Assembly: GCA_900617975.1 (NCBI GenBank)
Contig: UZAE01012204.1
Location: 12,989 to 53,103, forward strand
Source of the DNA: Rodentolepis nana
Taxonomy: Eukaryota > Platyhelminthes > Cestoda > Cyclophyllidea > Hymenolepididae
Length of the DNA: 40,115 bases
Direction of reading: 5' to 3'
Part shown: one piece after another, positions 11,319-37,324 of the stretch
Numbering within the stretch: position 1 is the first letter of the stretch
How the letters are laid out: the number at the start of each line of letters is the position of its first letter
The notes under the pieces: generated by a model
Told to the model about the DNA's origin: nothing
What the model saw: the letters and a program-made list of their open reading frames with translations, nothing else
Databases searched by the model: none
Position numbers and translations under genes: made by a program

Positions 11319-12212
11319 TCACCCTCGATTTGCTTTTCCTGCTGTATCATTCAATGGCCGACGGGAATTCGAGGCTGCAACAGCTGCTGGAGTTGCCTAA
11401 TAAGTAAAAAAGATACATTAGGACGTATTAATATATATACTTGCCATATTTTGTGTCCCTTACCCAACCCTTTGTTCGTGCTTTGGAAGAGGTCATAGAA
11501 GGGGGATTTGATGAAGAACCTCTAAAGACAGCAGAACGGACACCGGGTTTCGAGGTGTCGTCAGACCTTGCGACACTTCGTTGAGACAGAGAGGGAGGTA
11601 GGGCCTTTCGGTGTCGTCTAGGTGGACTGAGATTCACCTCAAAAGCGAGGGCTTCCTAAACAGAAAAACGCACAAAGCGTTCAAAATACAAACATCCCAC
11701 ATATTTTTAACAAGTTATTCAATAAACAAAAGTACCTTTTTCAGAGGCGGGTTTGAACGTCGAAACGGAGCGGTCTAAAAGTAAAAAAAACAACTAAATA
11801 CTCAAACATTTTCAGTGAACGAAACGCTCAAGAGCAGAGAACGGCCAAACTCAAGTAACCCAAATTAGAGTTTTACAATTGCCCCATATCCAGAGGACGT
11901 TCAAGGCTTATCACACCTGGGCAAGCTAACTTCAACCAATTCGATTAGACTCACATCTTTAGTAATTGGTTCGAAAGTGGAATCAGTCGTACGAGAGCGC
12001 GTTGAAGTGAGATCCAGTTTTTCGGCACCAACAATCCCTTTAGACCCCGTAAGAAGAACCTCAGAAATCGATTGGAGACCTTTAGGAGGCAAAGTGAACC
12101 CAGCAGGGGCCGGTGATTCCATAGATGAATGGGAGCACTGTTGTTGTTGCCTTTCTATGCCATTTTTATGAACTGTTTGTAGTAGGGTGAAGAGTTGGTT
12201 GGGACTCTGCAG
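11319..12212 (-). other. NuMA-like exons 22-25: basic C-terminal tail
   Basis: Residues 1089-1276. Exon 22 (11955-12212) is Gln-, Ser- and Thr-rich; its acceptor may instead leave the start at 12206. Exon 23 (11736-11774) gives RRSNPPLKK and exon 24 gives LSPPRRHRKALPPSLSQRS, plausible nuclear localisation clusters. Exon 24 can end at 11464 (donor GTAAGG) or 11441 (donor GTATAT). The first choice ends the protein at 11319 after NSRRPLNDTAGKANRG; the second ends it at 11351 after LQQLLQPRIPVGH. I prefer the first on donor strength. Confidence 0.6.
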
Positions 12213-14451
12213 CTTTAAAGGAAAGGAAAAATGGTTCTTACCTACGTCAAGTGGTGTCAGTTATGGAGAAGAGAGTTTACCTGGGTCTCTATGGGATAAT
12301 TTGTTCGAAGATGGAAGGGCTGAAGTTCATTACGCCTTCGAAGTTCGGCTAATCTTGAGTACATATCTTCTACAAAGTGGAAAAATTTTAAATCAAATGT
12401 GCAAGCAACAAAACCTATAAGCCGAACTGCAATGATGTCAACCACAGGATAATTTCAAACGTGACCTCACATCTAAGCATCGAATAATATGATCACTAAT
12501 TAGTCTTGTTTTCATAAAAAAGAGTATGAGACAAGCACAGATGACGATTTGCTTTATTTTAAGACGTTTGGACCTCCATTATCAAATACTTGGCCCCGAT
12601 TTTGCATAAGAGTTTATGAAAATTTTCTCAATGTACGAAGACCTTCCTCTCCAAACACATTACATATTTAGTTTATAAAATAAAATCACAGCACTGCATC
12701 CCGAATCAATCTAAACCGACAACAGATACAACGAATATTTGAGAGAACAAAGTTTGACCTACAAAACAGCATGATTCTCACTCAATTATCATCTAACACT
12801 TTCTCATAAAGTCAAAATGCTTTTGAATCTACAAGTTCGACCTACTACAATAAGTTTCCATTCGTATTAAATACACGCTGACAAGGTACCATAGGATTCA
12901 TTTCAACAAACTTACTTACCGTTTCACACATACAGTGATAATTAACAGCAAATAAATCTGTGACGAAATGAATGCATACAAGCCTAATGCCAAGTCCACT
13001 AATGAAACAATCTTAGGCGGATTTTGCACGAACGATCCCTTCGGGTATTAATTCAATAAGAATTTATTTGTTCAATTGCACTATGCCCACTTTTCACAAA
13101 GTAGCCACCAAGTTCAGCTGCAAAGAAGTCAAACACCGTCAAATATCTCAAACTAAAAAACGAAAAAAGGTGGCTCCCGATAGAAGTGGAAATTTCTCGT
13201 TCGCTTAGCTGGAGAAGGTCGACTACTCAGTGAAAGTGGGATGCCCAATGCGTATTCCCCCCCCCCATCTACCAAAAGTGAATGCGTTGAACTTTGAAGA
13301 GCATTTGAACAGGAACAAAGTAAGGCACCTTAATAAATAAAAAAATATAAGCTAGAAGAGAAATGGACAATTACCTGGTCGCTCAGGTGCATCAGCAGAG
13401 GATTGATTTCCAGGACCATTGGGATATGTCGGAGGCGGTTCCGAATCTTCTCGAACAGATGAGGCTGTAAACAAAAGAAAATTGCTAGCTACATAGCGGT
13501 CTTCACTCCATACATTCTTTCCATTACGTGTAAAAGGCCATTTAATAGAGCACATTATAGACGACTCTTAGTCGAATTCAATCTTTGTATTTCTAGAGAG
13601 TAATTCCAAAATCTGATACAACCTAAAGTAAAGACAAGAATCCACTTAGGACTTTCAATTCTTCCCTACAACCATGATTGTTTGCTTTCTTAAAAATGCG
13701 ATGTACTTGACTGACTAATGGTTGGCCAGCAATTAATGCAAAAATAGTGAATCAAGCCCGAATTGTGATCTAGTGTACGACGTATGAAGACTGCAAGTTA
13801 TAAAAGCTATACTTTCAATTACTTTCAAAACTGAACTTCATTGACAACTAAGCCTTTTTCGAACAAAACCGCCACCAAAGCGACGAACAGCAAAAGAACT
13901 TGTCAACCCAAGGAGAGCATAAACAAAACTCGAAAACCAAAGATTAGTGATGTTGGATAAAATAAAGCCTTGATGGGATCTTGTTCCGGAGTGAAATTAT
14001 TTGAAATGAAAAAAATTATGACTAATTTTAAATTTCGGAAAAGTCACATTTTAATAGTACGATAGCAACACATGGACTTCTTTCATATTTTCCCCTTAAT
14101 TCTTGCTATGCCAAATAGCTTGCGACCACGTCCTTATATGAAAAAAGTCTTCGGCGTTTCTCTCTCAAACAGAACGCCCCTATGGCTTATTTGCGATTGA
14201 ACCGAAATTGGATGAAACCAATAATTCGCTGGGAATACGTCCACAAAACCATTTCAAATACTAATGCATAAGAAGTATTCTTTACAGAGCCGATGACGAA
14301 ACTAAGTCATTGGAGTCCTCCTCTGGTGGAGAGGAATACGAGCATCATTCGAATAATCCAGTGACCAAGCACCAACAAAAAAGCTAACAGAACAGCTAAG
14401 AAAGCCGAGACAGTTATATATATATATATATGTATGTTTGTGTGTGTATGG

Positions 14452-14487
<36 letters not shown>

Positions 14488-17400
14488 TAGCTCACCAGAG
14501 CGAGTGTGGGATGGAGGCGGAGAGGAAGTAGCGGCCTGAAAACCACGGCAACGTTGTCCTCCACCATTAGTCTGCCGCTTCTGCTGTCTCTCTGATGAGG
14601 AGGGACTGTGATGTGCCCCGATGCCTTGACGATTGTCTGAAGAATGAGGGGGCGAGTAGGGAGGTCGGGAAGAGATCTGACTCAAATCTGTGTAGGCCAC
14701 ACTGTCATCATCTGTATCCACTGCGTCTTCAACTATGTAAGGAAAAAGTTAAGTTGAAGGTAATACCGGTTCCTTTCGTCTTAAAAAGATAAATTATCAA
14801 TTAATGGTATTTAATTTTAAATTCAATTTGAATGAAGACCGAAACAAATGGACCCCCATTAAAACACACATGAAAAGAGTAGAAATAGAAATTTAAGTGC
14901 ATGTCAAATGTACAGTTGTCAAAATACATCCTTGCTATGCCAATGAAAGTTAAGAGAAACAGCTCGGGAGTAAATAGTTAGTTCGATTGCTTTTAGAAAG
15001 GAAGACAAATGAAACTTCATCCTCGCAATTGTCAAAATGTTGAAGCGAAGGCAGAACATAGATGGATCACAGGTAGAACAGAACAAATTCAACGCACATT
15101 TTGATCCGTAAACCACGTCCCATCCCAACCGTGAGATGATTATTGATCAGCAAAATATGCTCAGCGTGACCTCAACATCACAATAACGTAATTTTCCCTA
15201 CAAATTTCTTATCCTCCTACTCCCACTTCTGTCTCTCATTACGTCTCTGTAAAATATCTTCCTTACTTTGGTGAAGCTTCTAGACTAGTGATAGGGCAAT
15301 TACTTGAAGCAGTAGTCTTTCATTAATGTATCAAAAGTAGTTCATAATGAACTATTACTAGGTTTCGAAATGACGTAATTTTAGGCAGTTGAGTGATTAA
15401 TAGAACGATACCAATTATTAAGAGATTACCACCAATGCATACATCAATACGCCGATTAAATCTCCTGTTTAGTCTCAAATGATCGTGCGACAATACCTCC
15501 TAATTAATGATCATTCGTTTACGTTATCGTCCCAGCTACATTCCCATATGGTAAGATAGCTCTTACCGTTGTAGATAGACTCTATCTATAAATAAGCAGA
15601 TGCAATCTTTCATCGTACAGACTCTAACGTTCCGTGTTTCCAATGCACAACTGTGCTAGGCTCACACTTTTCAAACTCCTACCGACTAATTCCCACAGAT
15701 TAGTCATTCACCCAACTCCAAACCCTAAGCATCTATTCTAGCATACGCTTTGTGCCCCTCTCCTTTCCTCCACCTCTCTCTCTACTAAGTTCAATTAAAG
15801 CAATATTGTTACTAAACAAGTGCCTTACTCCTTACTATTTGCAGATTCATCGTTAATGAACATGGTATTTTACCATTACAAGTCTTACTGACAGAATGAG
15901 TGAAACCTTGAATATGGAAACAGTGGGCGTAATACAAGGCTATTATAGATATATTTATAAACAAATTTGAATTTGAAACTTACTTGTAGGTCTGGACGTA
16001 AGAGAAATCTTCTTATGTTCGTTCCGAATTTGTTGCTCGTCTCTACTTGAAAGACTTTGCTAGAAAAGAAATACAGGGAGTTGTTTGGTTGAAAACTAAT
16101 GATTAAATTAGTTAATTTCTCAAGCATTTCAGGCATGGGCTATAGGAAACTTGATTAGTTTTTCTAATACAACTGCGTTTGAATTTATGCTGGACGAAAA
16201 CTTCCATCATGGCCAAATAAGCCATACTTTCCAAAAATAATACAGAAGTACTTTATCACTTCAAAGTGTCATATAACAGACGGTTGCTTAATTATCCGTC
16301 TGGCGCAACAGAGGGTTATACATTATGAATGCAGACAACTGTCTGAAAAATCCCTACGGAAATAAGTAGTAATTATTTTTAAAAAGAAAGAAGCCCACTT
16401 TATGCAGCATTCGCTCCAATTCCGATTCCAGATACTTTGAATTCTCCGCAAGACAGCGGATCTTCTCTAAAATAGGAAATAGTAAAGGCGAATTGAAAGA
16501 GGAAGAGTAGTCTAAATAAACAATTAAGCGTTGAAACCACCCACCCTCCATGTTTCGGCTCTTCTTCAGTTTCTCACGAAGATAATTTATATCCTCTCTT
16601 AGTCGACCGTTCTCTTTTCTCATCTCCTATTGGCAAGAGGGAAAGCAATAGATATTAGCAAATAAAGGGTTCAAAGGATAAACTGTTATTTGTCTCTTAT
16701 TTGCCTCCTAAGATAGTCTTAAAATGGAGAAACTAAAAAAAGGTGATATAGGAAATTTCAACAATTTACTCAAAACCCAACAATTTAGCACATTTCAACA
16801 AAAATGTAATACTCGTGCCAATTAACAACAAAATTGATAATTTTCCTTCCATTGGATTAAAGTACTCATCTTCAACCAACAGAAACATAGTGCCGCTCTA
16901 TCAAGGAAATATAAGCCATTTGTAGAACATACCACTATATCATTGTTACCATTGGTACAATAAAACGCATGTACAGCAGGACACAGTGCAAGCACACTGC
17001 AGACCGGGCTGCCATTAGTTACTAGCCCAATCTGGAATCGGGTAATGTTGAGAGTTAGTGCCAATAAACTAGACCATCATATACGTTAAGTGTGATCAGT
17101 AAGACAATTCACCCAGTGTCGCATAATGGCCAAATTTAGTAAGTTAAACTTCCAAGCTCTACCAAGCCAATCTGATATCAAGCTTTTGAAGGAATGGACA
17201 GTAGAACGATGTTCAATCAATGATTCAAAAACATATCATCAAGGTAGTAATTGCGGAATGACGATTAATGGTATTCAACTGCCAATGATTTGCTATCAAA
17301 GTCAGTCAGCAAAGTTCTGAACGTCACTTACATGAAATCATTCAATAATTCAGGGGTCAACAAGAAAATGGCCCTTAATAGTATTTGGAAGTAAACATTG

Positions 17401-20400
17401 ATATCCTTGATTTACTATTATCTCATTTCCAATACCCTATTTAGCCTCGTACTGGGAAATTCTGTGAGTTAAGAAGAGAACGCAAAATCAACCATTGTTT
17501 GAGAAATTACATTGAAATGGACAGCAAAGATAAATATTTTAGCGATTTTGCGCCCAAGACATAGGTGGGAATCTTGCAATTACGCATAGACTAGAATACT
17601 GCTTCCTGGACGCAACGATCGACAAGGTCTTCCAGTGCCGATTTCCCTTCTTGTAAAAACAAAAGTGCTAATGCGACACATCAGAATAACATCCTCCGTA
17701 CAGATTAAGGATTCAATACGGCCCTTATATAATCACTATTGAGGAGCAGCTGCCTACATCAATATGAACTGAGAGGAGAAGTAATATATTGATTAAACAA
17801 CGGTAATCGTTGGGATACATACATTGAGTCGATCACCCGAGAGGACTAGCTGTGAACAGACAGAGTTGAGTTCCTGAGCGATATCATACGAGATGGAGAC
17901 AGCATCATCGGCAACACCATTCTCTCGTCGCAGCAATTCTACGAGACCTCGAGATTCTAGACGACCGAGGAAGGCAGTGATGGCAGAGCGATAACGCTCT
18001 CCAATGGCGTGGAATCGACGCGCCTCCTTCTCGTTCAACTCGCAGAGATGATGAGCTCGAGCACTCAACGCTCGCTCCTCGCGATATCTCTCCTCCATGA
18101 GGCACAGTTTCTCACGCAATAAGATGAAAAAAAATATTCCGGGTTACAAAAATTTGTGTTTGTCTCATTCTCTTTAGCCCTATTGACTGATTTCCACCAG
18201 CCTCTCATACGTTATGGCTTGCAAAGTATACTGGTCGCCTGAACTTATTTATTAAGTATCACTAGCAACATCTAATGGCTCTCCAATTTAGTATCGTAGC
18301 ACCCTTAAGAAATCATGCCTACCAATGGTATATGCCATAATTTAGAGGCTTCACAAATAACCTAGGATATTAACCTAGAGATATTAAGAAGTTCGAAAAA
18401 GGTCTAACCTACAAAGCGACAATACCGTAGTTAGTAAATATACTCCTGCTCTCTATTTCCAATTCTGCCAACATTAGTCAAACGATCATTAGTAGGCACA
18501 AAGATCGTGGATCCAGAAATCGAATTCATCACAAGTGAGACTAACCAGCAAGTGTTCACAATGCCCGTAGACGGAGTGGACAGAGATACAGTGGCAAACT
18601 TACCAACTGAGTAATTTCCTCCTCGTTCATAGAGATTGAATGAGTTTGAACCAGGTCCTTCTCACTACCGCCGACCTGTTCTATCACAATCGGAGATTCA
18701 ATAGCCACTTCTTGAAGGTCAGTCTGAACAGACACTTCAATTTGATTCTAAAATAAGAAAAAAATCGTCGCGTGGCAAATTGCTGACCTGTTATAATGTT
18801 ATGACATTTCGATAAGCCGATTCATTTTCAAAAGTTGCTTATTACTTATTTCCCCAATAGTCCGAAGCATAATCTGTAGGAGGTATCTTACCCATTGCTT
18901 CATCTTCAGTAAAATGGTCCTATGGCACTAATATAGAGTAGAGAAAGCAGAAAGACACTACTTTAAGAAACCTAAGTTCCCCCCCCCACATATGAGCAGT
19001 CAGGAAGAGCGTAGTTATTTCGATTGATGAGGATGATCTCAGCATGCTGATTCATCGAAGGGGTTATACGTAAATCCATTCTAGGCTACCTATTCGGTCA
19101 ACAGAGAAGTAAGTCTGCAGGTTGGCAAAGAATGTACATTCATTTTCATAGAAAAAGTGTTCAATTTTAAATGAAGAATTTATGTTGCAAGTGCAGCACC
19201 GAATACATCAATCAGAAGGAAAAAAACAGTTAAGGCGGATAGAATTTAAACTTTTTCTAATGAACTTAATAAAAGAGTTGCCGGATTAATTTAAAATAGC
19301 ACTGCAATCAAATCAAGCGGAATAAGTATAGCTAAAGAACGGTTAGTGAATTTAGTCGCTAGTCCAAAAAAGGAATATTTGTAAAATACTGAAACAAATA
19401 AATCACAAAAATAGATCCGAGATGTATTTTGATTAAAAAGAACACCAGGTTAATAAAGATAGCCCGATGTGAGATGTGGTTTAATTTTATACAACCCCAA
19501 AACGTTAATAGTTAATTAGATTCAATACAACTGGAACAATTGATACAACCACTAGGAGATTCACCGTCACAGGCTGGCTTAGAGAAAAAACTTGTGTAAA
19601 CTATAAAATATTATGAAAATTGTAATTATTTTGTGACCAATAGATTTTGTGCTCTACTTTATGGATACTTCGGTTCAGGCTGTTCACATGCGGAGGCAAT
19701 GTCAGTAATATTTGTTCGTTAACTGAGAGAGCGTGACTAACAATGCTGCCGGCACAAATACCGCTACATTCGTTATCTACATCTTAACGACAGCTGTAAG
19801 CAATTTCAAGTAGATATCGAATTTAACCACAACAGAGTAAGCTCTGATGCCAAATGGCAGGGATCGATTTGCAGTTTTGCAATACGAAATTGTTAGCACC
19901 ATTTCATTTGACACACGCATCCATATAGCTTAAATTAGTCTGGAAATAAATGAAGATTTCTCGGCGTGAACGTAAGGTAGCACGTACGAGGACGTATCGA
20001 AAGAACCTATCTGTATAAACAATTCTTACTTTAAATGCACCGTTTCAAACTAAAACAGCTACCACTCTGTCGCATCAAAATCGCAGTCAAATCTCACCTA
20101 GACAATAGCGTGTAGCTGACGTAAAGATGTCAAAGCCAGGGTTCTTGGTAATCTAAAGGCTGACTGTATTTTGTTCGCAAAGTTGAACTAATAAACAAAG
20201 ATTGTAGGAAGGGCAACTTATCACAAACTGAGTAAAGTATAAAACAGCGAGCAAAGCTACTAATACTCATAAAAATCAAGGAATGGTCGATAGATATCGG
20301 GCATAAAACACAAAGTGCTTACATCAACTGGTGCTGCAGTTTCAGTGTCAGTTTGAGTCGCATACTCAGCACCTGAAACAGTCTTCTCATCCGCTAACTT

Positions 20401-23400
20401 ATTTTGTGAGAGTAAGTTCAAGAGAGCGTTGGCAAGGGAGACAACTTCGGGAACGAGAAGGGCCGACAACGACGAGGAGAAATCATCAAAGGAAGAGGCG
20501 AGATTGGCTTGCAGTGTGCCCAGATCCTCCAGAATATGATCTCGAGCTGTTTCTGCAGCGGCCTGACTTTCTTGAGCCATCACCACAGCAGCTTCCATGT
20601 CAATGTGGTCCAAACGAAGCTTCGCCACATAGTCACGCAGTTCTTCAACCACCAAATCGGAGCTTTTCTGCAATGAATGATTGTTTGGCTAATCCCAAAA
20701 TAATAAACGGACCCCACAATCATTCAGTTTACCACTGTTCAAACGCACTTATAATTGATCAGTTATAATGACCTTTAGGCCCCACAATTGAAGAGGAAAT
20801 TGGTGGCCATTGTGCCAAGATGGTCACTTGCCCTCACGCTTCTACTTGTTTCATCTATCTATTTTTTCTAAGGTTTTATAGATCTTTATGGGCATTCAAC
20901 TCAACTTACCTTAGCCACAAACATCCCTTAATTAAGTTTTAAATCACCCTTGGCTCATTCTACCACCATTCAGACTAAGAAAAGAACCGTAAACCTAACT
21001 ACCTTAACAGCCAAAATCCAATTTCCCCACATATTTTGGAATTTTAACCACAGGATATGACACAACAAACAAGAATGGATAAAGAGAAAAACAGGGGGGG
21101 GGGATACCGACACAGAATTTAACGAGCCCGTCATTCTACCAAAAGGCGGCAGTTTGACAAGATATTGCTCACCTATTTTCCACCTAAATTACTGTTGTTG
21201 CTAGAACCTGAATACTTACAATTAATTCCACGGACAATATTGCGGCTGAAACTACATCTCACGATAAAATTCACTTGCTAATGGCTTATATTTAAAAAAA
21301 GAAATTCGGATGACATGCATGATCAGTCAAATTAAAATGTAACGCAATTCAAGAAGCTAAATTATTGCTGTCAGATATTTTCTAAATATTGAGGTAATTA
21401 AATGAAAACGGCAATTTGTTGATATGGAATTCACATAACCTCCAGCTTACTGATCAACAGGTGAAAACAGTGCCGAGGCAAGTTATCAGTGCAAATATCT
21501 CTATGGCAATTCGCCCATGCATTCCATTCCAAACCACTCATTTAGGACCCGAATTCGTATGCAAACTGTTTTTGAAAAGTAGATTGAGTGGCTTTGAGCT
21601 CCGACAGCCAAAATGCCACCAAAAAGTAATTTATAAATATCGATAGTTAACGCAGGATTGGCAATTTAGAAACCACCATCAAAAGGGACTTGAGTAAGAT
21701 TTTAACAAAAGCGCTCGATAATCAGTGTGTTGCAATGATAATAGAAATAAACAAATACCAAAAACAGCATGTACACTCTACCAAGGTTTTGCTATGAATG
21801 CGCAAATCGATAAAAACTGAATAAAAAGTTATTAATTATAAAAAAATCCTCTTTCTCATTCAGTTGTGTCCCAAGAAACTGAAAGAAAGGTAGGTAACTA
21901 AACATAGCATAAAGCTATTGATGAATCGTTTCGATATATCTACTAAACTGGGAAAAGATCTTGCCAATTTTTAACTATCATGTCAATTTTAAACAAATAT
22001 AAATTCCACTTTGAACTTGTGTGTCAAATGCGGGCAAGGAATCTGCAGTACTTATCAATATACGCAAAAACATTATGTCTCGGAAACTACGCCCAGTTTT
22101 AAGATTTATGAGACATGCATTTGGATCGTTTATTTATTTGATTATATTAATGGACCGTCAGTCTTATCTAACCTGTTCGATACGCGGTAAAATTATAGAA
22201 AAAAATTGATGGTTGCTGTGACGAATTTGAGCCAATTTAAGGCAGCAAAAAGCCGAAAACCATGAATCACGAGCTTTCGCGCTTTTAAAATCCCCATCGA
22301 CTAAATAATCGACACTCATGACCAATGGACGTCCTTAAAGACAATAAAACAAAACATTACTTATTATGAAGACAATTGACTAACTGTCCAACCTAAAATG
22401 CCATCGCAGACACAAAGGCGCATTACGAAAGGTTAGGACTAATAGCACTATAGGCAAAACGGCTTTGTCTGGCACAATTTCCGCAATTTCCTATGCATTT
22501 ATGCTGTCTAACACAAGTATTTACTTAATTTTTTTGGTAACTGCAAAAAATACCTCAATTTCTTTTTTACGTTGCTCTTCAGAAGAAGAAATCTTCAACT
22601 CTTCCATCGCAGAGGCCAAACGACCGTAGAGATCATCACGCTCGTTTTCAACCTGTAAAATATGAATATAAAGTAGCAGATTTCTGCAAAATCGTCTTCA
22701 AGCTATTTCCAAGCATCTAGTCTAATTAAGGCTCATGAAATTTTCTTATTAAGTCCTTAATGAAAGGACTCAAATACTCAAACCATTGGTTCTAGCGCAG
22801 TTAACTAAATGAAACGATTGCGTATGACCAAGGCATTTTGATTTTACTTGGTCAAGATGGATACCTGAAATCCACCAGTAAGTGGTAATCAATTTCTCTT
22901 CTCCCGTCTTTCAATTTAGATGATTCCGAATTTGTAATTAAACAACTTTTGGAAAATTCTTGGTTAAGGAGAGTAGAAAGGACTAAATAATCAATTAAAT
23001 GAAGGTTGATCAAGTTATACCTTAGGCAGAACATACCCAGAGCAATAAATAAATCTAAATAAAAATACATTAGACCTACAAGTTTAAGACGCTGAAGTAG
23101 AGATTCTTTGTCCATTTGGATCTCAGAGAGAGACTTCTTCAAATCTTCAAGTTCTAACCTGGCATTCTACAAGAAAAAAAGCCATCATAGGAAAAACAAA
23201 GAAAACAGATTTTGTTTCAAATTTTCTATTCATTGACAAATTTCAAATATCACCTCTCTATTTCGAAGGTGATTTAGTTCACTAAGTGAACTTATTCAGC
23301 AGATTAGTCAGACGTCGTCTCTCTTCTAAAGTTACCTTGACGAAGCGTTAGAAGATAGAACGAGAGAAGATTTAGCAAAACTCTTTCCTCTTGAACTGTC

Positions 23401-26400
23401 AACTCTAAGCAGTTATACATAAGATGACAGACCATAATTTGGAACAGTTAGTGAGTAAAAGTACATTAGTGAGCCTTAAAGCCTTTAATTCAACATTAGC
23501 TGAGATAAATAAGGCAAATATCATACAATTAATTAGCAAATGGCTAGTTTCTGGCAAATTAAAGATTTAGGCAAAGCCATTAACAGTCTTACCTTAAGTG
23601 CCTTTACATCATCAGTATGATTATGCACCAATTTTTTCAGATTATTGCATTCCTCCTGAAATTGGGAGAGCTGAACTTCGAGAGACCGATTACGCATGGC
23701 GAGTTCATTACTCTCATTCATGAAGTTGTTCTCCGATTTCCGTTTTTCTTCTAATTGAACCTTGGGTAAGTACAAAAGCAATCGCTAATCATTTTAGTCA
23801 AGTAAAATGGAACTTGAATCAATAACGATTCCGGGAAATTTGATACATTTTCTGCTTTAATCGTGGAAAGAGTATTCAACTGTTCAACCGATTTGGGGAG
23901 TTTAAAATGACTAATTCTTGCTCCAAATAAATATATCGAAATTATATCAATTGTTTGCAAGAAATTAAAAATGTTATTGATTTTATTGACCTAACAAATT
24001 CGAAGCAATTTCAGGCCTATTCAGCGTTAACAAAGAGACTTAACCCACACTCTCCTATTCAAAAAGATCTTAATCGAGGATTCCATACTGCTCCACAATG
24101 CGTAAGCTCTCCAAGACAAAGGAAAGTGTGCATTCAAATTATTATCAATGGATATCTACTGCAAAGAAAAATAACTGCATTTCGAAGTGATAAAAACCGC
24201 ACAAATCGGAGGACCAACGAGATAACAGTCAATAGGTCATATGAAGGGAGTTTACCAGTAAATTCACGACAAGTTATGCATGATTTCGTATGCATGCTCG
24301 TCCTTCAAAGATCACATACTATGTCTAGATACTGGCTAAAGATTACACAAATTCAGTACTCTTTAATGGCGTAATTGTAAAAATTTTTACATGTCAGTAC
24401 ATATTTAATATGGCAACGGAAAAATGAACGGAGCGAAATTAGGTAAAGGATGACTTACTTCAAGTGATTGAATTTTACTCAGAGCTAATTCGAGTTCCTT
24501 GTGAAAGATTGAGCCGAGATTTTCTCCACCGTTAGGAGAAAGTATGGGTTGATTTGAAGTGATAGGTGCGATGCTCACATCAAAAGACGTGTCTGGTAGA
24601 TCTGAAAAAGAAAAAATAATATGGATTAGTAAAATCAATCACAATCCCTACAAATCCCATATCAACTTCATATTGAAGAGGGGGGGGGGGGGAAGGAGGT
24701 GAGATTCGAACAAGCTTCATTAGAATGCTAAAATACCAGTACTATGCGGATTATTTGCCTTAATTCTCGCATTAATGCAGCTATATCAAAAGTGAAAGCA
24801 ATTATAAATGCTTCAAGGTTTTCCTCGTCAGAAAAAAAGTGCCAGGTATAGTTATACAATTTTGGGATAAAAGCCTTACCCACCCTGTTTGAATGATTAT
24901 GGGCAGGACGTAAGTAATACTTCTCAGCCTCAAAGCTCAAAATCATAAACGTGAACCAGGTGATTACTACAATCTAACAATAGTAAAATGTAAGAACACG
25001 AAAAGGAATTCAATCTGAAGAGAAAAAAGATCTTTGACTTCAAATAGCTTGACAAGCGGAAATTTTGTGCCATCGAGGGCATAATTTAAAGCAATCTTAT
25101 TTGGTCTTTAAAATGCATTGGGCCAAATTTCTAGAGTTGGTATATATCATTGCACCATACAATGATATACTCCCAGTGACCATCGTGGCATTAGTAGTCC
25201 GTCACGATCGACAATGAAAATGGTAGGGGATAAGAAATCTGAACAATTCGATCACGATCAGGGGCATTGAGACATGTCGTTTTGGAAACACAGAACAATC
25301 CACATGGAGACAAATAAAGTCAAACTGGTGATAGAAGCCTGTATTTGAATACCGGCTTCGAGCACCAACTCTTACCAATCAGAACGGGCAAGGAAGACCT
25401 CATGCCAACAAAGCAGATAAGCCGTTTTGCAGCATTTGATTGGTTCAGAAACAGAATAAAAAGGATAGAAATCATGAACATATGTCAGAAACGTTAATTT
25501 ACATTCCTAGGAACTAAATTTCTTATTGTTGATTTCTGGAAATAGAGTCCTATCTAAATACAGTCCTTAATTTGCCAGTAAACCTTTCAATACTTTTAAT
25601 ATATCAACAGCTTTGTGGAAAAGGTTTCCAACCGTTCTACCTTATAAAAATATTTGAGCCCCAGGAAGTCATGTTTCAGAGACGACCCAGTGATATATCA
25701 GAACGAATACGATAAAGCGTCATAAAAGATTTTAGCCTCAAAATATGACTAAAGTAGTAAACTAAGCAAACACAACTATTCATTACAAACACGACCTTAT
25801 ACGGCATGACAGTACATTCAATCAACTTACTAAACTTTACTATACAAAGAAATCGCATTTCAGAAGTGGAATATTAACGTATAAGCTCAGTATTTTCTTA
25901 TTCCGTTCCAGCGTTGAGTAAAGAGAGTATATGCATTTCTAAACCGCACATACTGGTAGAAAACATTATAAAAACCTGAAAACTATACATTATACAATAC
26001 AATTAGTTAAGTGTCTTTTACACTCTAAATAGGCACTGGTGTCACATTTCAGAGATCCGACCTTGAAAAAAAAGAATAGAGTTAAGTCTGAAGCCACCTC
26101 ATTTGGAAAGAAACTAAGTACTGGATAATAAGGACAAATTAGCAAATAATGAACAGAAAACCCTAGTTATTTAGGTAGCAAGAAGGAGGACCAACATCAA
26201 CTAACGTTCTTGTTCTAAAACTCATTCCAATTTCGATGTTCAGTAAAATTGTTACCAGCAAGCTTTAGTCTGACTAACCCAAGTGATGCTCAAACACAAT
26301 TCCACTACTATAAATGTAAGACTTGATCAACGAAGCGTCTGCAACTGTGACAGCGCAATAAACATCTTAGAGATATTTCAACTCCAGTTACTGGGATTTC

Positions 26401-32400: not shown

Positions 32401-35400
32401 ATCTTTTACATTCATGGAACATACTTCAAAGGGAAGAATTCTAAAAAAACTGACGAAGTCGAAAACCGCTTGAATGAGTATTTTAATTAAAACATTCTTT
32501 TTCAGTTAAAGTAACGAAAAAATTACAAGAGCACCGAGAAAGAATCACGAAAGATGACAGAAATTGCACTATAAGTGTTCAAATGAATAATTTAAGACCA
32601 AATAACACTTGGTGTTTTATAAAAGTCAAGCTAAGAAGTAAAGATGGGACCAACTGACATCTTTCCGTGCCCGTGCCCGTGTAAACCTTATGTTGGCATA
32701 AAATATGAGGGCATGCCAATACAATTGGTCGTGATCTCAAGTTGGTCGATTAATTAGCAAACCTAGCAGTACCTAATCCATGTAAAATCTAGGCATAACA
32801 GGCGTTCCAATATTCTCAGAGTGATAGGAATTTTCCCTTGGGATCTACGCAGGAGATTTAGAACACAAATGCCACCTCAGCGTAAAAAGAGATAGTGTAC
32901 ATACCACCATTGTCATTCTGTTGGTAACCATTTTGTTGTGAGGATCGCTTCTCAGCAATGCGCTGGTCAATCTTCATTTGTTGAACGACGGACTGCTGGC
33001 TAAGAACATCCTGTTCTAAAGCCTCACGAAAACGTAATTCCTCCGCTAATCGGGCTTCTGCCTCTTTCAAACGGCTTCGCATTGTTTCCACTTCTACATG
33101 GTATGCTTCACGTCCCTTATACTCATTCACCTTCTGTTGAAGAGCCAAAATCTGAAGGAGATATAGCATTTTCACAGGGGGAATGACGATTAAATTAAGT
33201 AAAGACGAGTAAGTTCTAATAAAGATGGCACATAGTCCGAAAATTATTAAAGGGAGCCGCGAACAATTCCTGATGAAGTTATTCCCAAACGTTAAATGTA
33301 GAATTAAGCAAAGTACAATAGTAGATAACTAGATAATAAGGCGAATCTGTAATATGCTAATACACAATGAGATTAGAATGAGCTAGAAAGGTATTAGTGC
33401 GGTTGTCCATCAAGGTTGTATTAAAAAACCCACTGCTTTTTATACTACACAAAATAATTATCTTATACGGAATCAAACTAATGTATCTACGGAAAATACC
33501 CATCTGGAATCTTTCTTATCGGCGTACACTGAATGGACTGAGAAGAATCTTAGTCACTCCAGTTATACTCGGACAGCAGCATGGATTTAATTACAAGGAC
33601 TAATAGGTTATACTGAAGGCAATCAGAAAAATTGTGCTAAATCATAATTTTTCGCATGATAGAGTATAGACAATAACTCACCTTGGCATCTCTATCAGTC
33701 AATTGGTATTCAATGTCTTTCCTGTTGCTATTCGCCTCATTTAAACGCGCTTGCGATTCCACCAATCGTTCTTCCAACCTGACAATAGGAAAAAACAAAT
33801 GCAAAAGCAGTGAATTGTCGTTAATCCAGTTAACCGATAAACGCATATTAAGCTAACATTAACGATCGGGTTACATTACGAAAAAAGTGTCCAGTATCCA
33901 AAAGGTATATTGTTCAGGCGCGTTATTATTCACGAAATTCTGCTAGTTCTTTGCACCAATGTGGATTATTTCAGCAGTAAATCATACGACTATTAAAATT
34001 TTTAAACATCATTTAATGGGAACAATTCTAAAAAGAATCTGAGAATTGATAATTCTAAGAAAGACAAATGTAAATGGTAGCTTGAGAATTATTAAATTCT
34101 AAACTAACAGTGAATTATTACTAGATGGTAAGGAAACTGGATCTCCCAGTTTCCCACCTATCACTTAGTCAACAATAGCATGTTAGATGTTAAAATTTGA
34201 GACATTGGTAATATAAATAACCAGGGGAAAAATCTCACGTCTTAATCCTCTCAGCTTGGAGGACGAGTTCGGCCCTTGCCTCGACAAGCTCGTCCTTGTT
34301 GTCCTGCCATTGGAGAGCATCTCGTCTCAGGCGAGAGACCTCCACCTCGGCGACGTGAGCCCGTCTCTCAGTCTGTGCAAGTTGTTCACGCAGCTCCACG
34401 GAGAGGGCCTCCGCGTCTTCTCGCTCTGCCTCCGCACGAGCGGCCCGCAATTCTGCTGCACGTACTCGTTGCTCCGCCTCATGTAATCGCATCTAGTGTT
34501 TGTGAAGAGGAAAAGCTGATGTTTTCATTCGATAAACAAGCTAAAAGCTAGAACTAAGGCGGATTGTGACTGCAGGGGAATGCAATGCGTTTGATTGAAT
34601 GGATAACGCCTCACATGTTTAAGAATACCTACTAAATGCGGAGGAATGGGGGAGGACATACACTAAATTGGAAAGATGCTAAAATAAAAGTTCCTCCTTC
34701 GAAAGACGTGTTTAGGAAAGCACTTCATGAAATTGAAACGATTAACAAAACGCGCGTGGTAAGACGTTGATATTCACATCTTAATCACTGTAATAAATAA
34801 TTCGAAAACCAAAAGTTGGGCATCCACTAACAGATGCACAGACCACAATGTAGTTTAACATTGTGTGAAATCAGACCAATTTCGACTGATCTTAATATAT
34901 CTACACCGCGTTAATAATGCAAGGAAATATAGTCTAAGATGTGAAGAAAATAGACAAAAGAGTCGAGAGGAAAAAAAGATTATAAAAGGGGGGGGGAGAA
35001 TGTTGCCATTCACCTTATCCGTCTAATTGCCACAATAAGAGATTACTGTCAATCGCTACACTGAGCTCCCAATATGCAGGTGTTGATATTAATTTGATCA
35101 AACAAGCTTATACAACTGGTTATAGCAAAACTGAGAATTATGTGAGAGGGAAATTTCGAATACGCGTCTACTTTGATGTCAAAGCTTAAGTTTACAAAAC
35201 CAAATATTTTTCATAAATCTGATCGGTTGCCAAGGCCATTATGAGCGGCCCAAAAAGACAAAAATGGAAGTGGAAAAGAGAAAAATTATAAACATGTTTA
35301 CAGATTGAATGAGTCAATCATTAATCGCTAAGAGAAAATCCAATTCACTCTATAGAAATCCAAGACGATATAATGCAAGCCGACCTAACATAAGGTTATC

Positions 35401-37324
35401 CAAAGTTGAAAGTAGGTAAAATTTAGCTAGCGGAAAGTGAATCAAGGGGGATTTAACACAGGCACATTTTGTGAGAAATAAAACAAGAATACTGCCGAAT
35501 TGCAAAATATGTGCAACAACAGACAGCATAATGGGAAAAATGGGGAACTTAAATTTAGATCACTAAGTATGCCAGAGGCGGCGTGTTTGCCGACCATATT
35601 GAAATAACACGAATATAGTCGCTCAGTCTGCGTCCACACGATTAAAATCAACACCAAAAGATTTAACTGAAGCATGCAAATGAAATTATAGCTAAGTCTA
35701 AATGGAGATTTCTGATAAAAATTAAAAAGCGCATGCATGGAAGAAATAGAAGGCAATCAAATGAAAGCATGATTAGTGCCAATATAAAGTGAAATAATCG
35801 AATGTGAATGGGAAAATGTGAGAATCCATCACCGATTACGAGCGATTTACCTTACATGTAGATCCAATTGCCTCGTTTGACTGTTGAAGATTGAAAATAA
35901 AGTTGAAGAAATCGTTAAATATTTTAATACGAATAGTTGAAATATGGAAGTTATACAGTATACTAAATAGTGAAACGTAATTGATCAGCACCCTGGTTTT
36001 CCTGGCATCTTTTTGACACATCGAACAGATGTGCATAACACTCTAGGACAGTAAGAATGGTCGAAGAATAACACCAGTTAGTGCCAGCATTCAAGAGATT
36101 AGTGAAATGGCTTAATTATGAACTACATGAGCGTAGGCAAATTTTTTCATCACAAAGAGTTAAACTGGCTCACTCTAAGTTTTCTTAAACTTTAGAAAAG
36201 ACAAATCGAAATTAAAAAATCTTTGTGAAGGGTTTTCATCACAACAGAACAAACCAGACCAAAATATAAATCTGTAATAGTATACTTAGCCAGAACCCAT
36301 CAGGTGCGATTTCGGTCGGCTATTGACGGCTGGTCTATTTTTTTCAAGCAAAAATACAAACTAGACTAACCTTGATATTCCAATGTGGGGATTCAACCAG
36401 GGTTCTGAGAGGAGTGAGAGGAGAAGCAGGAGGAATAGAAATCTTTTCGCTCTCTGAGGTTACCGCCTTTTGATGGGATTTCGTTGGAGTTAATGAAGGC
36501 GGTGGCATCAAAGCATTATCATTGGCAATTTGCAGGGAAGTTGGACGGATGGGAGCCTGAAAAAGCCAGAAATTAAGTTATACGTTAAGAAAGTTAGAGA
36601 AACACAAGGCAAGCTAACCTTCTCAGAATAGCAGTTATTAATCCCATTAAAATTCGATGAATTTTTCTTGACATTAATTGGTGTACTAGTAGTAAATGTT
36701 GTGGCACCATCTGAAGCCTCATTAAAATAATGGTCGCTTTCGGTCTTATTAGGGGTTAGATTCTTCAAAAGAGAAGAAATGATTCTTATGAGACATTAAA
36801 ATGTGCAAACACAACAATTCTATACATACAGGAGGACCAACCAACTTGAGGGCGTCCAATATATCCTCGCGAGTAACCTTTTCATTGTTTTGAATTTTTG
36901 TCATTGGGTTCTGAATCATATTAAATATTTCCGCTTGCGTTGCATCGCTAAGAGAAAGCGCAGCGTCGATAAACTTTTTAGCACTCTTGGTCTGCATAGA
37001 CCCAAGCATTACGAGATACACCGCCTAAGTTAATTTGCCAATAGAAAACAATAATGCTTTACGATCTCACACTCCATAGAATCTTCAAATAAACCATCCA
37101 AATTAATCATTTCATATACATTAGAACCGATATACTGTTCTATAAATGCTTTCAATACATCCTTAGAGGATTGTCCCTCAGTCGAAAGAAATTCACTAAA
37201 TAAGTAAAAAAAATTAGCAAGATTCTGCTAACCATTCACTTATAATTCTAAGTAAGCAAGATTCGTCTAAAACTGTTATGACGCTGCCAATAACAGAAGC
37301 AGTCCAATCGCGTAAAACCCCCAT
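11319..37324 (-). CDS. NuMA / LIN-5 / Mud-like spindle protein, 25 coding exons
   Basis: Exons: 37233-37324, 37063-37195, 36830-37024, 36619-36762, 36371-36556, 34239-34492, 33682-33778, 32905-33151, 24459-24601, 23593-23760, 23080-23166, 22554-22652, 20323-20667, 18604-18747, 17823-18110, 16545-16626, 16399-16466, 15984-16059, 14496-14732, 13375-13464, 12281-12369, 11955-12212, 11736-11774, 11464-11655, 11319-11396. All junctions are GT-AG and in phase; total 3831 nt, about 1276 residues. The domain order is Hook-like domain, Ser-Pro linker, interrupted coiled coil, disordered Pro/Ser part, NLM block, basic tail. That order and the NLM block identify the family. Family knowledge: NuMA links dynein to the cell cortex through LGN/Pins and organises spindle poles. 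At about 1276 residues it is shorter than human NuMA (about 2100), mostly in the coil. The start is the first ATG after an in-frame TAG. Missing in-phase exons within the large introns cannot be excluded. Confidence 0.8.
12281..12369 (-). other. NuMA-like exon 21: NLM / LGN-binding block
   Basis: Residues 1059-1088. EDMYSRLAELRRRNEL followed by QPFHLRTNYPIETQ matches human NuMA (RIAELQQRN, then PPHLKTCYPLE) at nearly every conserved position: Arg, Ala-Glu-Leu, Arg-Asn, Pro, His-Leu, Thr, Tyr-Pro and Glu. This is the block shared by NuMA, LIN-5 and Mud, lying in the part that binds LGN/Pins. It is the strongest single piece of evidence for the gene's identity. Both splice sites are clear (ACTTTGTAG; GTAAAC). 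Confidence 0.85.
13375..14732 (-). other. NuMA-like exons 19-20: disordered Pro/Ser region
   Basis: Residues 950-1058. Exon 19 (14496-14732) starts with an acidic run (EDAVDTDDDS) and continues SRPPYSPPHSS, then Gln-, Gly- and Ser-rich sequence. Exon 20 (13375-13464) gives EDSEPPPTYPNGPGNQSSAD. Low complexity and many SP sites suggest a disordered, phosphorylated segment, as in the NuMA tail. Exon 19 ends just before a dinucleotide microsatellite. Confidence 0.65.
14415..14485 (+). repeat. compound microsatellite (TA)n and (GT)n
   Basis: (TA)8 at 14415-14430, an imperfect TG stretch, then (GT)16 at 14454-14485. It ends about 9 bases inside the intron from the donor of exon 19 (donor GT at 14494-14495). 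In the pre-mRNA it reads (CA)n then (UA)n. Confidence 0.85.
14733..15983 (-). other. NuMA-like intron 18
   Basis: 1251 nt; donor GTAAGT, acceptor CCTTACATAG. A pyrimidine-rich stretch on plus at 15755-15785 is the only compositional feature. Confidence 0.5.
15984..16626 (-). other. NuMA-like exons 16-18: last coiled-coil block
   Basis: Residues 875-949. Exon 16 (16545-16626) gives MRKENGRLREDINYLREKLK, exon 17 (16399-16466) gives IRCLAENSKYLESELERMLH, and exon 18 (15984-16059) gives SRDEQQIRNEHKKISLTSRP where the coil ends. The intron between 16 and 17 is 78 nt. Confidence 0.65.
17823..18110 (-). other. NuMA-like exon 15: charged helical block
   Basis: Residues 779-874, 96 codons, phase 0 at both ends. 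It gives MEERYREERALSARAHHLCE and later GERYRSAITAFLGRLESRGL, highly charged and helical. It is GC-rich, with many CG-ending Arg codons, unlike the AT-rich exons 4 and 10. The acceptor (TTATTGCGTGAG) is weak, so the left edge of the exon is the less certain one. Confidence 0.65.
18604..20667 (-). other. NuMA-like exons 13-14: helical block and acidic linker
   Basis: Residues 616-778. Exon 13 (20323-20667, 345 nt, the longest) gives SSDLVVEELRDYVAKLRLDH, an Ala-rich helix and a hydrophobic patch (LLVPEVVSLANALLNLLSQ) unlike the rest of the coil. Its end and exon 14 (18604-18747) repeat the pattern TQTD / VQTD and are rich in Glu, Thr and Val, so probably disordered. I know of no named domain here. 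Confidence 0.65.
18748..20322 (-). other. NuMA-like intron 13
   Basis: 1575 nt; donor GTAAGC, acceptor TTATTTTAG. It contains a C-run at about 18980-18988 and nothing else recognisable. Confidence 0.5.
20668..22553 (-). other. NuMA-like intron 12
   Basis: 1886 nt; GT-AG ends in phase 0. A G-run lies at about 21095-21103. No exon was recognised. Confidence 0.5.
22554..24601 (-). other. NuMA-like exons 9-12: Ser/Pro break and second coil
   Basis: Residues 450-615. Exon 9 (24459-24601) starts DLPDTSFDVSIAPITSNQPI and ends in helix (KELELALSKIQSLE). Exons 10 (23593-23760), 11 (23080-23166) and 12 (22554-22652) are continuous coiled coil, for example KRKSENNFMNESNELAMRNR, LKKSLSEIQMDKESLLQRLK and ERDDLYGRLASAMEELKISS. 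Introns are 426-698 nt with clean GT-AG ends. Confidence 0.7.
24680..24692 (+). repeat. G13 homopolymer
   Basis: Thirteen consecutive G on plus, 79 bases upstream of exon 9 of the NuMA-like gene, so it is a C-run in the pre-mRNA near the 3' splice site. The length may be inexact because homopolymers are prone to sequencing error. Confidence 0.7.
26881..27234 (-). repeat. dispersed repeat, copy 2 (inverted)
   Basis: Reverse-complement counterpart of 4754-5041, with similarity across nearly the whole element. The GTCCACGTTG-like end is at 26881. The other end carries a perfect 33-bp direct duplication (27125-27157 and 27179-27211) separated by a 21-bp AT-rich spacer. It lies in intron 8 of the NuMA-like gene and makes no splice site that I can support. 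Confidence 0.7.
29187..29207 (+). repeat. (TTA)7 microsatellite
   Basis: Perfect trinucleotide run inside intron 8 of the NuMA-like gene. Confidence 0.8.
29486..29508 (+). repeat. interrupted C-run
   Basis: C12-G-C7-G followed by CCC. On the transcribed (minus-sense) RNA this reads as long G-runs, so a G-quadruplex is conceivable. Similar shorter runs lie at 13257-13266, 21095-21103 and 34989-34996. Confidence 0.6.
32905..34492 (-). other. NuMA-like exons 6-8: first coiled-coil block
   Basis: Residues 251-449. Exon 6 (34239-34492) gives MRLHEAEQRVRAAELRAARA and continues with heptad-like Ala/Leu and Arg/Glu. Exon 7 (33682-33778) gives LEERLVESQARLNEANSNRK. Exon 8 (32905-33151) ends in a Gln/Asn-rich break (SSQQNGYQQNDNG). 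Exon 6 is much richer in G+C than its flanking introns. Confidence 0.7.
34493..36370 (-). other. NuMA-like intron 5
   Basis: 1878 nt with GT-AG ends and no supported constitutive exon. It contains the possible microexon at 35851-35880 and a short G-run at 34989-34996. Confidence 0.5.
35851..35880 (-). other. possible 30-nt microexon
   Basis: Inside intron 5 the minus strand has AATCTTCAACAG, a 30-nt segment encoding SNEAIGSTCK, then GTAAATCG. Both splice sites are good and the length is a multiple of three with phase 0 on both sides. Skipping it also gives a good protein (HWNIK joined to MRLHEAEQ), which aligns better with other NuMA proteins, so it would be a cassette exon at most. Confidence 0.3.
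36371..36762 (-). other. NuMA-like exons 4-5: linker with Ser-Pro motif
   Basis: Residues 141-250. Exon 4 (36619-36762) is Asn-, Ser- and Thr-rich and looks disordered. Exon 5 (36371-36556) is Pro-rich and ends SPLTPLRTLVESPHWNIK, which parallels human ASPMGDILQTPQFQMRRL directly before the coiled coil. Several SP and TP dipeptides could be proline-directed kinase sites; that is inference. Confidence 0.6.
36830..37324 (-). other. NuMA-like exons 1-3: Hook-like domain
   Basis: Residues 1-140. MGVLRDWTASVIGSVITVL followed by DESCLLRIISE matches the NuMA start in the Trp, the following hydrophobic spacing and the aspartate-x-cysteine/serine-hydrophobic-Ile-Ile pattern (human LLSWVNSL and LQDCSIFIKIID). 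Exon 3 gives AVYLVMLGSMQTKSAKKFID, parallel to human MTMLLLYHSTMSSKSPRDW. In this family the Hook domain contacts the dynein light intermediate chain. The three exons are separated by introns of only 37 and 38 nt. Confidence 0.7.

What the first reader, a model, noticed from the sequence alone, without database searches (positions are those of the whole stretch)
11319..37324. Compact NuMA/LIN-5/Mud homologue in a probable flatworm
Seen: 25 phase-compatible exons give Hook-like start, Ser-Pro linker, coil, NLM block and basic tail. Known: this order defines NuMA family proteins. Inferred: a full spindle-orientation adaptor of about 1276 residues, which sequence searches dominated by coiled coil could easily label as hypothetical or myosin-like.
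Basis: partly seen in the sequence, partly recalled or inferred. Interest (0 to 1): 0.75.

Follow-up and report, generated by a model that had tools for sequence, protein, structure and literature searches.

The report
Unrecognised tapeworm NuMA spindle-orientation gene
The window holds a tapeworm version of NuMA, the protein that ties the cell's dynein motors to the cell edge to orient division; it is a new, shorter member of a known family that databases list under unrelated names.

Summary
On the minus strand, 37324-11319, I rebuilt 26 phase-compatible exons, 1286 aa. The organism is the tapeworm Rodentolepis nana. Exon 22 encodes a clear NuMA/LIN-5/Mud (NLM) block: 78 against a shuffled best of 14.2±4.8, 0 of 1000; 14 of 28 residues match human NuMA (human 1929-1943 recalled). 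The block is in 15 of 16 homologues found, all cestode. In 5 of 5 cestode proteins scanned, the best match to the Spindly motif described for human NuMA in 2024 (GEVLGDVL) is GENLG[SA][VI]F; for R. nana alone this is not significant. The C-half of the N-terminal domain resembles HOOK (hhalign E 2.3e-4), not human NuMA; residues 1-62 have no outside support. The human LGN-binding peptide just upstream of the NLM is not recognisable. The genome holds an LGN/Pins-like locus and a separate HOOK gene. Databases call orthologues TRAF3-interacting protein 1, CHMP7, Rab6-interacting protein 2 or keratin, partly because gene models are fused to neighbours. New member of a known family; function inferred.

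The parts
36830..37324 (-). Exons 1-3 (37324-37233, 37195-37063, 37024-36830): residues 1-140, Hook-like N-terminus. Q105 (36937-36935) and I112 (36916-36914) fall on HOOK3 Q147/I154, the LIC-binding pair
   Evidence: splicing; hhalign to HOOK, 48 ungapped columns; Q105 and I112 invariant in 6 cestode rows; exons 1-2 up to residue 62 without outside support
36371..36762 (-). Exons 4-5: Ser/Pro-rich linker, residues 141-250, ending TPLRTLVESPHWNIK, a weak counterpart of human NuMA SPMGDILQTPQFQMRR (P212/Q215, proposed HBS1)
   Evidence: best window in 3 of 5 cestode proteins but within the shuffled range (62-120 of 1000)
35851..35880 (-).
   Evidence: orthologous PLEENGSTTK / PPNENGSTSK in P0005 / P0006
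32905..34492 (-). Exons 7-9: first coiled coil (CC1), about residues 261-455
   Evidence: one uninterrupted helix of 206 residues in the AlphaFold2 model of orthologue P0012
24504..24527 (-). GENLGSIF, residues 485-492 (exon 10), candidate counterpart of the NuMA Spindly motif E407-x-LGDVL (409-413) at the start of CC2
   Evidence: Top-scoring window in 5 of 5 cestode proteins scanned; 3, 11, 19, 37 and 160 of 1000 shuffles as good (R. nana the weakest); human letters checked in PDB 9hhl; motif from PMC11623564; GENLGxxF in 11 of 16 homologues, the other 5 being fragments
16399..24601 (-). Exons 10-18: break, then second coiled coil, about residues 500-934
   Evidence: helix inferred from sequence, not folded here
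18724..20358 (-). Two putative LC8 (dynein light chain) motifs: TQT, residues 729-731 (20358-20350), and SVQT, residues 745-748 (18735-18724)
   Evidence: Pattern search; S[VI]QT[DEG] is found in 10 of 16 homologues (P0001-P0009, P0011); LC8 reading recalled, not tested
13375..16059 (-). Exons 19-21: post-coil low-complexity region with the conserved block EDAVDTDDDSVAYTDLSQISSRP
12281..12369 (-). Exon 22: NLM block EDMYSRLAELRRRNELQPFHLRTNYPIETQ, residues 1069-1098
   Evidence: 78 against 14.2 plus or minus 4.8, 0 of 1000; one match in the genome; present in 15 of 16 homologues
11955..12212 (-). Exon 23: second conserved cestode block, ...LPPKGLQSISEVLLTGSKGIVGAEKLDL
   Evidence: no counterpart seen in the human tail alignment
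11319..11774 (-). Exons 24-26: basic tail; LAFEVNLSP (11649-11623) may correspond to human SMAFSILNTP (CDK site T2055); stop at 11321-11319
   Evidence: the match to the T2055 region does not beat shuffles (123 of 1000); orthologues P0007, P0010, P0013, P0015, P0016 end in the same motif

Best explanation
This is the R. nana orthologue of NuMA/LIN-5/Mud, made compact by a central coil about half the human length. [quoted passage not shown] The coil dimerises it and sets its reach. The C-terminal NLM block and basic tail tie it to the LGN/Pins-Galpha complex at the cortex and to microtubules, so that dynein pulls astral microtubules and orients the spindle. Shown here: gene structure, family membership through the NLM, and TPR and GoLoco exons of an LGN-like locus in the same genome. 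Inferred: every binding step and the function.
For: NLM 78 against 14.2 plus or minus 4.8, 0 of 1000 shuffles in R. nana and 0 of 1000 in each of 4 other cestode proteins. The whole C-tail against the human tail: 107 against 49.2 plus or minus 8.1, 0 of 2000. MAFFT placed the human NLM on the cestode NLM without guidance. NuMA order Hook-like/linker/CC1/GExLG box/CC2/NLM/basic tail. Hook-like C-half with the LIC-binding Q/I pair. LGN-like locus: TPR exons, three of four matches 44-69% identical to human LGN, the fourth 40%, and two open frames over the GoLoco cut-off. One NLM match in the genome. A separate HOOK_N exon exists, so this is not the HOOK orthologue.
Against: No significant match to the human NuMA Hook domain. 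The Spindly-like box in R. nana alone is within chance (160 of 1000). The N-terminal part of the human LGN peptide (1900-1918) is not recognisable in any of 5 cestode proteins (194-748 of 1000). The human-type NLS and the S1969 site are not recognisable. Pfam gives the deposited R. nana protein a GAS (growth-arrest specific, microtubule-binding) match over its cut-off, E 2.9e-12, at model residues 500-612; I read it as coiled-coil similarity because P0005, P0007 and P0010 lack it. Residues 1-62 have no outside support. No expression or interaction data. The letters of human NuMA 1929-1943 are recalled; their number fits published residue numbers but no call confirmed them. The NLM comparison is with human only; no LIN-5 or Mud sequence was in hand. 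Dynein LIC was not looked up (the request did not complete four times).
Confidence: 0.87

Rival explanations
1. The deposited annotation is right: one 1713-aa fusion protein containing TRAF3-interacting protein 1 (IFT54).
For: P0001 joins the gene to a MIP-T3/IFT54 region; P0003 (H. diminuta) and P0002 (H. microstoma) carry similar joins.
Against: The MIP-T3 domain lies at P0001 1222-1332; P0001 1213-1335 maps to window 9889-9491, beyond the stop at 11319. By inspection the join needs an intron that skips the stop codon. E. multilocularis is fused to a different gene (KTI12). T. solium, Spirometra, Anoplocephala and Schistocephalus proteins stop in the same C-terminal motif.
Confidence: 0.05
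2. A HOOK or CCDC88-type dynein adaptor rather than NuMA.
For: The C-half of its N-terminal domain is closer to HOOK than to human NuMA.
Against: A genuine HOOK_N exon lies elsewhere in the genome; Pfam HOOK_N does not match here; the NLM is, from recall, not a feature of HOOK proteins. CCDC88 sequences were not compared.
Confidence: 0.04
3. A NuMA-family protein whose main job in tapeworms is not cortical spindle orientation but minus-end or pole organisation, or interphase microtubule anchoring.
For: The best conserved part, ELRRRNxLQPFHxRTNYPxETQ, lies mostly C-terminal to the minimal LGN peptide and inside the region that is MTBD1 in human NuMA; the upstream LGN-contact residues are not recognisable.
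Against: An LGN-like locus is present; LIN-5 and Mud are essential at the cortex (PMC8047419, passages), and the Pins-binding peptide of Mud is not well defined either (PMC3438535, section; PMC6525239, passage).
Confidence: 0.25

Closest known systems
Human NuMA (NUMA1, 2115 aa)
   Same: NLM block 14 of 28 identical; order of parts; E-x-LG-[DS]-[VI]-[LF] box at the start of CC2; basic tail
   Different: 1286 aa; coil about 680 against about 1490 residues; C-half of the Hook domain closer to HOOK; LGN peptide 1900-1918, NLS 1988-2005 and S1969 region not recognisable
C. elegans LIN-5 and Drosophila Mud
   Same: Members of the NLM-bearing family by published definition; LIN-5 is also compact (recalled)
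   Different: Sequences not available here; not compared directly
HOOK1/HOOK3 (and the R. nana HOOK at G000:C3424)
   Same: C-half of the N-terminal domain, including the Q/I pair that binds LIC
   Different: No Pfam HOOK_N match; separate gene in the same genome; coil and C-terminus differ (from recall, not compared)
Cestode orthologues P0002-P0016 under other names (CHMP7, Rab6 interacting protein 2, keratin, Myosin_tail_1, AIP3; several unnamed or hypothetical)
   Same: Same gene in other cestodes (close paralogues in Mesocestoides not excluded)
   Different: Truncated or fused gene models; none starts with the full Hook-like domain

Membership tests
[quoted passage not shown]
   0 of 1000 shuffles in each of 5 cestode proteins. 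Compared with human only; human 1929-1943 recalled
NuMA/LIN-5/Mud | N-terminal Hook domain that binds dynein LIC | tested here: inconclusive
   C-half resembles HOOK (SW 5 of 5000); no significant match to the human NuMA Hook domain; binding not testable here
NuMA/LIN-5/Mud | Long central coiled coil | tested here: met
   AlphaFold2 helix 248-453 in P0012 (CC1); CC2 judged from sequence only
NuMA | Spindly motif LGDVL with upstream Glu at the start of CC2 | tested here: inconclusive
   Top window in 5 of 5 proteins at the expected place, but 3 to 160 of 1000 shuffles as good
NuMA | Minimal LGN-binding peptide 1900-1926 | tested here: not met
   1900-1918 not recognisable in 5 cestode proteins. 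Only the C-terminal R-[LV]-x-E-L part, inside the NLM, is kept. Not required for the family: the Pins-binding peptide of Mud is not well defined either
NuMA | NLS 1988-2005 | tested here: not met
   298-678 of 1000 shuffles as good in 5 proteins; also not conserved in LIN-5 and Mud
NuMA/LIN-5/Mud | Basic C-terminal tail | tested here: met
   20 K/R against 5 D/E in residues 1185-1286
NuMA/LIN-5/Mud | Binds LGN/Pins/GPR and dynein; positions the spindle | not testable with these tools
   Only the presence of an LGN-like locus was tested
HOOK | Pfam HOOK_N domain | tested here: not met
   No hit in 6 of 6 rows of A4, one of them covering residues 1-138; separate HOOK_N exon elsewhere, E 1.5e-15
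TRAF3IP1 / IFT54 | MIP-T3 CH-like domain | tested here: not met
   Domain lies at P0001 1222-1332, downstream of this gene's stop
GAS8-like (Pfam GAS) | Pfam GAS domain | tested here: inconclusive
   Over cut-off in P0001 (46.8 against 32.3 bits, residues 410-522) but not listed for P0005, P0007, P0010; lies in the coil

The most novel reading that the evidence does not exclude
Cestode NuMA keeps an older adaptor design: a HOOK-type LIC-binding Hook domain, the GExLG Spindly box, and an NLM whose conserved core is a binding site of its own (for microtubule minus ends or a further partner) rather than the LGN peptide known from mammals. LC8-type QT motifs in the middle of the coil would couple it directly to a dynein light chain. 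Half the human coil length would give about half the reach at the cortex.
Probability: 0.3. Interest if true: 0.55.

Novelty: new member of a known kind. Interest (0 to 1): 0.4.

Why it matters
It gives tapeworms a nameable spindle-orientation adaptor. Five searches of open-access papers listed no paper that describes a flatworm NuMA by title or abstract start (and 88, of which only 10 of 282 were listed); most subscription journals are not held. It shows why the gene was missed (truncated starts, fused neighbours, coil-driven labels). It adds a deep comparison for two open points: which part of the NLM does what, and whether the 2024 NuMA Spindly box is ancestral. Flatworm stem-cell biology could test it directly.

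Tried and rejected
Tried without result: PDB sequence search with the NLM exon or the NLM profile (0 hits; the solved NuMA peptides found end inside the block, at the R that I number 1928 or before); PDB search with the N-terminus (only chance hits). Pfam on three pieces of the model (1-188, 626-959, 1069-1286) gave nothing at cut-off; the deposited whole protein P0001 has one match over cut-off inside this gene, GAS at model residues 500-612, taken as coil similarity. AlphaFold2 was run on H. weldensis P0012, which lacks the first half of the Hook domain (block pLDDT 41-65 there; pTM 0.27); the PDB comparison of 67 chains listed no Hook or NuMA structure, which excludes nothing for half a domain. 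Two further homologue searches aimed at trematodes, planarians and other phyla returned only cestodes (in 41 only the 7987 candidates sharing most words were scored); one search also missed close orthologues already in hand, so absence there means little. GoLoco and Insc_C family searches of the genome found nothing, but their controls rang nowhere either. Codon scores could not tell exons 1-2 from intronic frames. S1969, T2055 and NLS counterparts did not beat shuffles. An Rfam scan of the window gave no match.

Considered and rejected: real fusion with IFT54; HOOK/CCDC88 identity; myosin-like, keratin or GAS8-like labels.

Full report
WHAT IS THERE. On the minus strand between 37324 and 11319 I assembled 26 exons with GT-AG introns and compatible phases, giving 1286 residues and one stop. 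The window is G000:C2402:12989-53103, and the best homologue, P0001 from Rodentolepis nana, sits on a contig of 53103 bases and is 99% identical, so the organism is this tapeworm. P0001 agrees with residues 81-1286 of the model in 1196 of 1206 aligned positions, the other 10 being the microexon. E. multilocularis and T. crassiceps carry the microexon's counterpart.

HOW SURE ARE THE ENDS. The stop at 11319 is supported: T. solium (P0007), Spirometra (P0010, P0016), Anoplocephala (P0013) and Schistocephalus (P0015) proteins end in the same SRRPLKE... motif. The other homologues are fused, cut or divergent there. The 5' end is less sure. P0001, P0003 and P0005-P0007 begin inside exon 3; P0010 has an unrelated lead; the other models without a Hook part begin further downstream. 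Only H. weldensis P0012 reaches into exon 2 in frame: it begins MDGLFQDSTECEIAAYLVML and so confirms the end of exon 2 and its junction. H. microstoma P0002 begins MDYLKILRS before AVYLVML. R. nana has a similar string, MVYLKILW, in another frame at 37097, inside exon 2, so that start looks like the same DNA read out of frame (inference). Residues 1-62 have no outside support and no distinctive codon score.

FAMILY. Seven human NuMA stretches were slid without gaps along five cestode proteins (the model and 4 of the 16 homologues) and compared with 1000 shuffles each. The NLM stretch scored 78, 70, 68, 67 and 68 against shuffled means of 12-15, with 0 of 1000 in all five; in R. nana 14 of 28 residues are identical. 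The whole C-tail aligned to the human tail at 107 against 49.2±8.1, 0 of 2000, and MAFFT aligned the two NLM blocks without guidance. The block is present in 15 of the 16 homologues returned; the exception, P0012, is an N-terminal piece from a contig of the same length and with the adjacent locus number as P0004. A search of the genome with exon 22 gave one match, itself. The human letters 1929-1943 are recalled; they fit the published positions of S1969, T2055 and the NLS but no call confirmed them.

SPINDLY-LIKE BOX. A 2024 preprint (PMC11623564, passages read) places the NuMA Spindly motif at LGDVL (409-413) with E407, at the start of CC2. The PDB chain 9hhl confirms GEVLGDVLQLE there. In all five proteins scanned the best window for this stretch is GENLG[SA][VI]F, which lies at the break between the coils. 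The scores are modest: 3, 11, 19, 37 and 160 of 1000 shuffles are as good, R. nana being the weakest, and the five are not independent. GENLGxxF is in 11 of 16 homologues; the other 5 are fragments. The proposed HBS1 site (P212/Q215) has its best window at the linker end in three of five, within the shuffled range; of the other two, the Mesocestoides fragment lacks that region and Spirometra's best window is elsewhere.

HOOK-LIKE DOMAIN. Against the human NuMA Hook domain (PDB 6qja/9hhl) nothing significant was found: Smith-Waterman 35 against 28.6±4.7, 207 of 2000; hhalign probability 0.2%. Pfam HOOK_N was silent. Against HOOK proteins the C-terminal half does better: 43 against 23.3±4.3, 5 of 5000, for R. 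nana, and 36 against 24.2±4.5, 98 of 5000, for Spirometra, two of six comparisons made (the four against human NuMA gave nothing). hhalign gave probability 44%, E 2.3e-4 over 48 ungapped columns; 0 of 300 column shuffles reached its 23.3, the best reaching 22.3. In that alignment Q105 and I112, invariant in six cestode rows, fall on HOOK3 Q147 and I154 (numbering by recall), reported as crucial for LIC1 binding (PMC6400558, passage). AlphaFold2 on P0012 shows helices 8-24, 26-36 and 40-58 there at low to middling confidence, and one helix 248-453 at mostly high confidence for CC1. The PDB comparison gave no Hook structure.

WHAT IS MISSING. The upstream half of the LGN peptide (1900-1918, with the Phe and Glu-Pro-Glu described in PMC3438535, section read) is not recognisable in any of the five; nor are the NLS, the S1969 region and, statistically, the T2055 region, though the conserved AFE[VI]x[FL]SP box is aligned to human AFSILNTP by MAFFT in some rows. 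The Pins-binding peptide of Mud is likewise not well defined.

PARTNERS IN THE GENOME. Human LGN (recalled, matched to PDB) finds four stretches on G000:C2735, three at 64, 69 and 44% identity and one at 40%; the 69% stretch is listed with two stop codons inside its frame, probably because it crosses an intron border. Nearby open frames hold GoLoco motifs, two over the curated cut-off and one partial below it; the genome-wide GoLoco search itself had found nothing, with silent controls. A separate HOOK_N exon lies at G000:C3424. Dynein LIC could not be looked up.

DATABASE STATE. Names given to homologues include TRAF3-interacting protein 1, Protein CHMP7, Rab6 interacting protein 2, Keratin type I, Myosin_tail_1 and AIP3 domain proteins; the others are unnamed or hypothetical. 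In P0001 the MIP-T3 domain lies at 1222-1332 and that stretch maps to window 9889-9491, beyond the stop; in E. multilocularis the extra part is KTI12. Different neighbours fused in different genera point to gene-model errors. P0001 also has a Pfam GAS match over cut-off in its coil (model 500-612), not listed for P0005, P0007 and P0010. Paper searches for NuMA with flatworm and LGN, Hymenolepis (34), planarian and spindle orientation (79), Schistosoma (80) and cestode terms (88, 10 of 282 listed) showed no description of a flatworm NuMA in the listings; the T. crassiceps genome paper mentions NuMA only as background or in references (passages) and a planarian microtubule paper only in a reference title (passage). 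The other listed papers were not opened on this point, apart from PMC9804148, where the word was not found.

MECHANISM. Most likely (0.87 for family; about 0.7, by inference, for cortical dynein recruitment): Hook-like domain and Spindly-like box engage dynein-dynactin, the coil dimerises, the NLM and basic tail bind the LGN-Galpha complex and microtubules. Only the sequence parts are shown; each binding step is inferred from the family.

Noticed in passing
window 9889-5949 (-): The next gene downstream is IFT54/TRAF3IP1 (MIP-T3 domain); the deposited model continues into a Gly-rich region (GKTGHLIGALGSGLISGATGAV...) that may be a further gene. Deposited models fuse it to the NuMA gene.
   Followed up: partly
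window 20358-20350 and 18735-18724: TQT and SVQT motifs of LC8 type in the middle of the coil; S[VI]QT[DEG] is found in 10 of 16 cestode homologues.
   Followed up: partly
window 14732-14496: Block EDAVDTDDDSVAYTDLSQISSRP right after the coil is strongly conserved in cestodes, with no counterpart recognised in human NuMA (not searched systematically); it could be a cestode clustering motif.
   Followed up: no
window 12212-11955: Block PKGLQSISEVLLTGxxGIVG, highly conserved in cestodes, of unknown role.
   Followed up: no
L008, L009 (G000:C2735): LGN/Pins-like locus with TPR and GoLoco exons; not assembled into a gene model.
   Followed up: partly
window 32904-24602 (-): An 8.3-kb intron between exons 9 and 10, just before the Spindly-like box; 15 of the other 24 introns are below 500 bases.
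   Followed up: no
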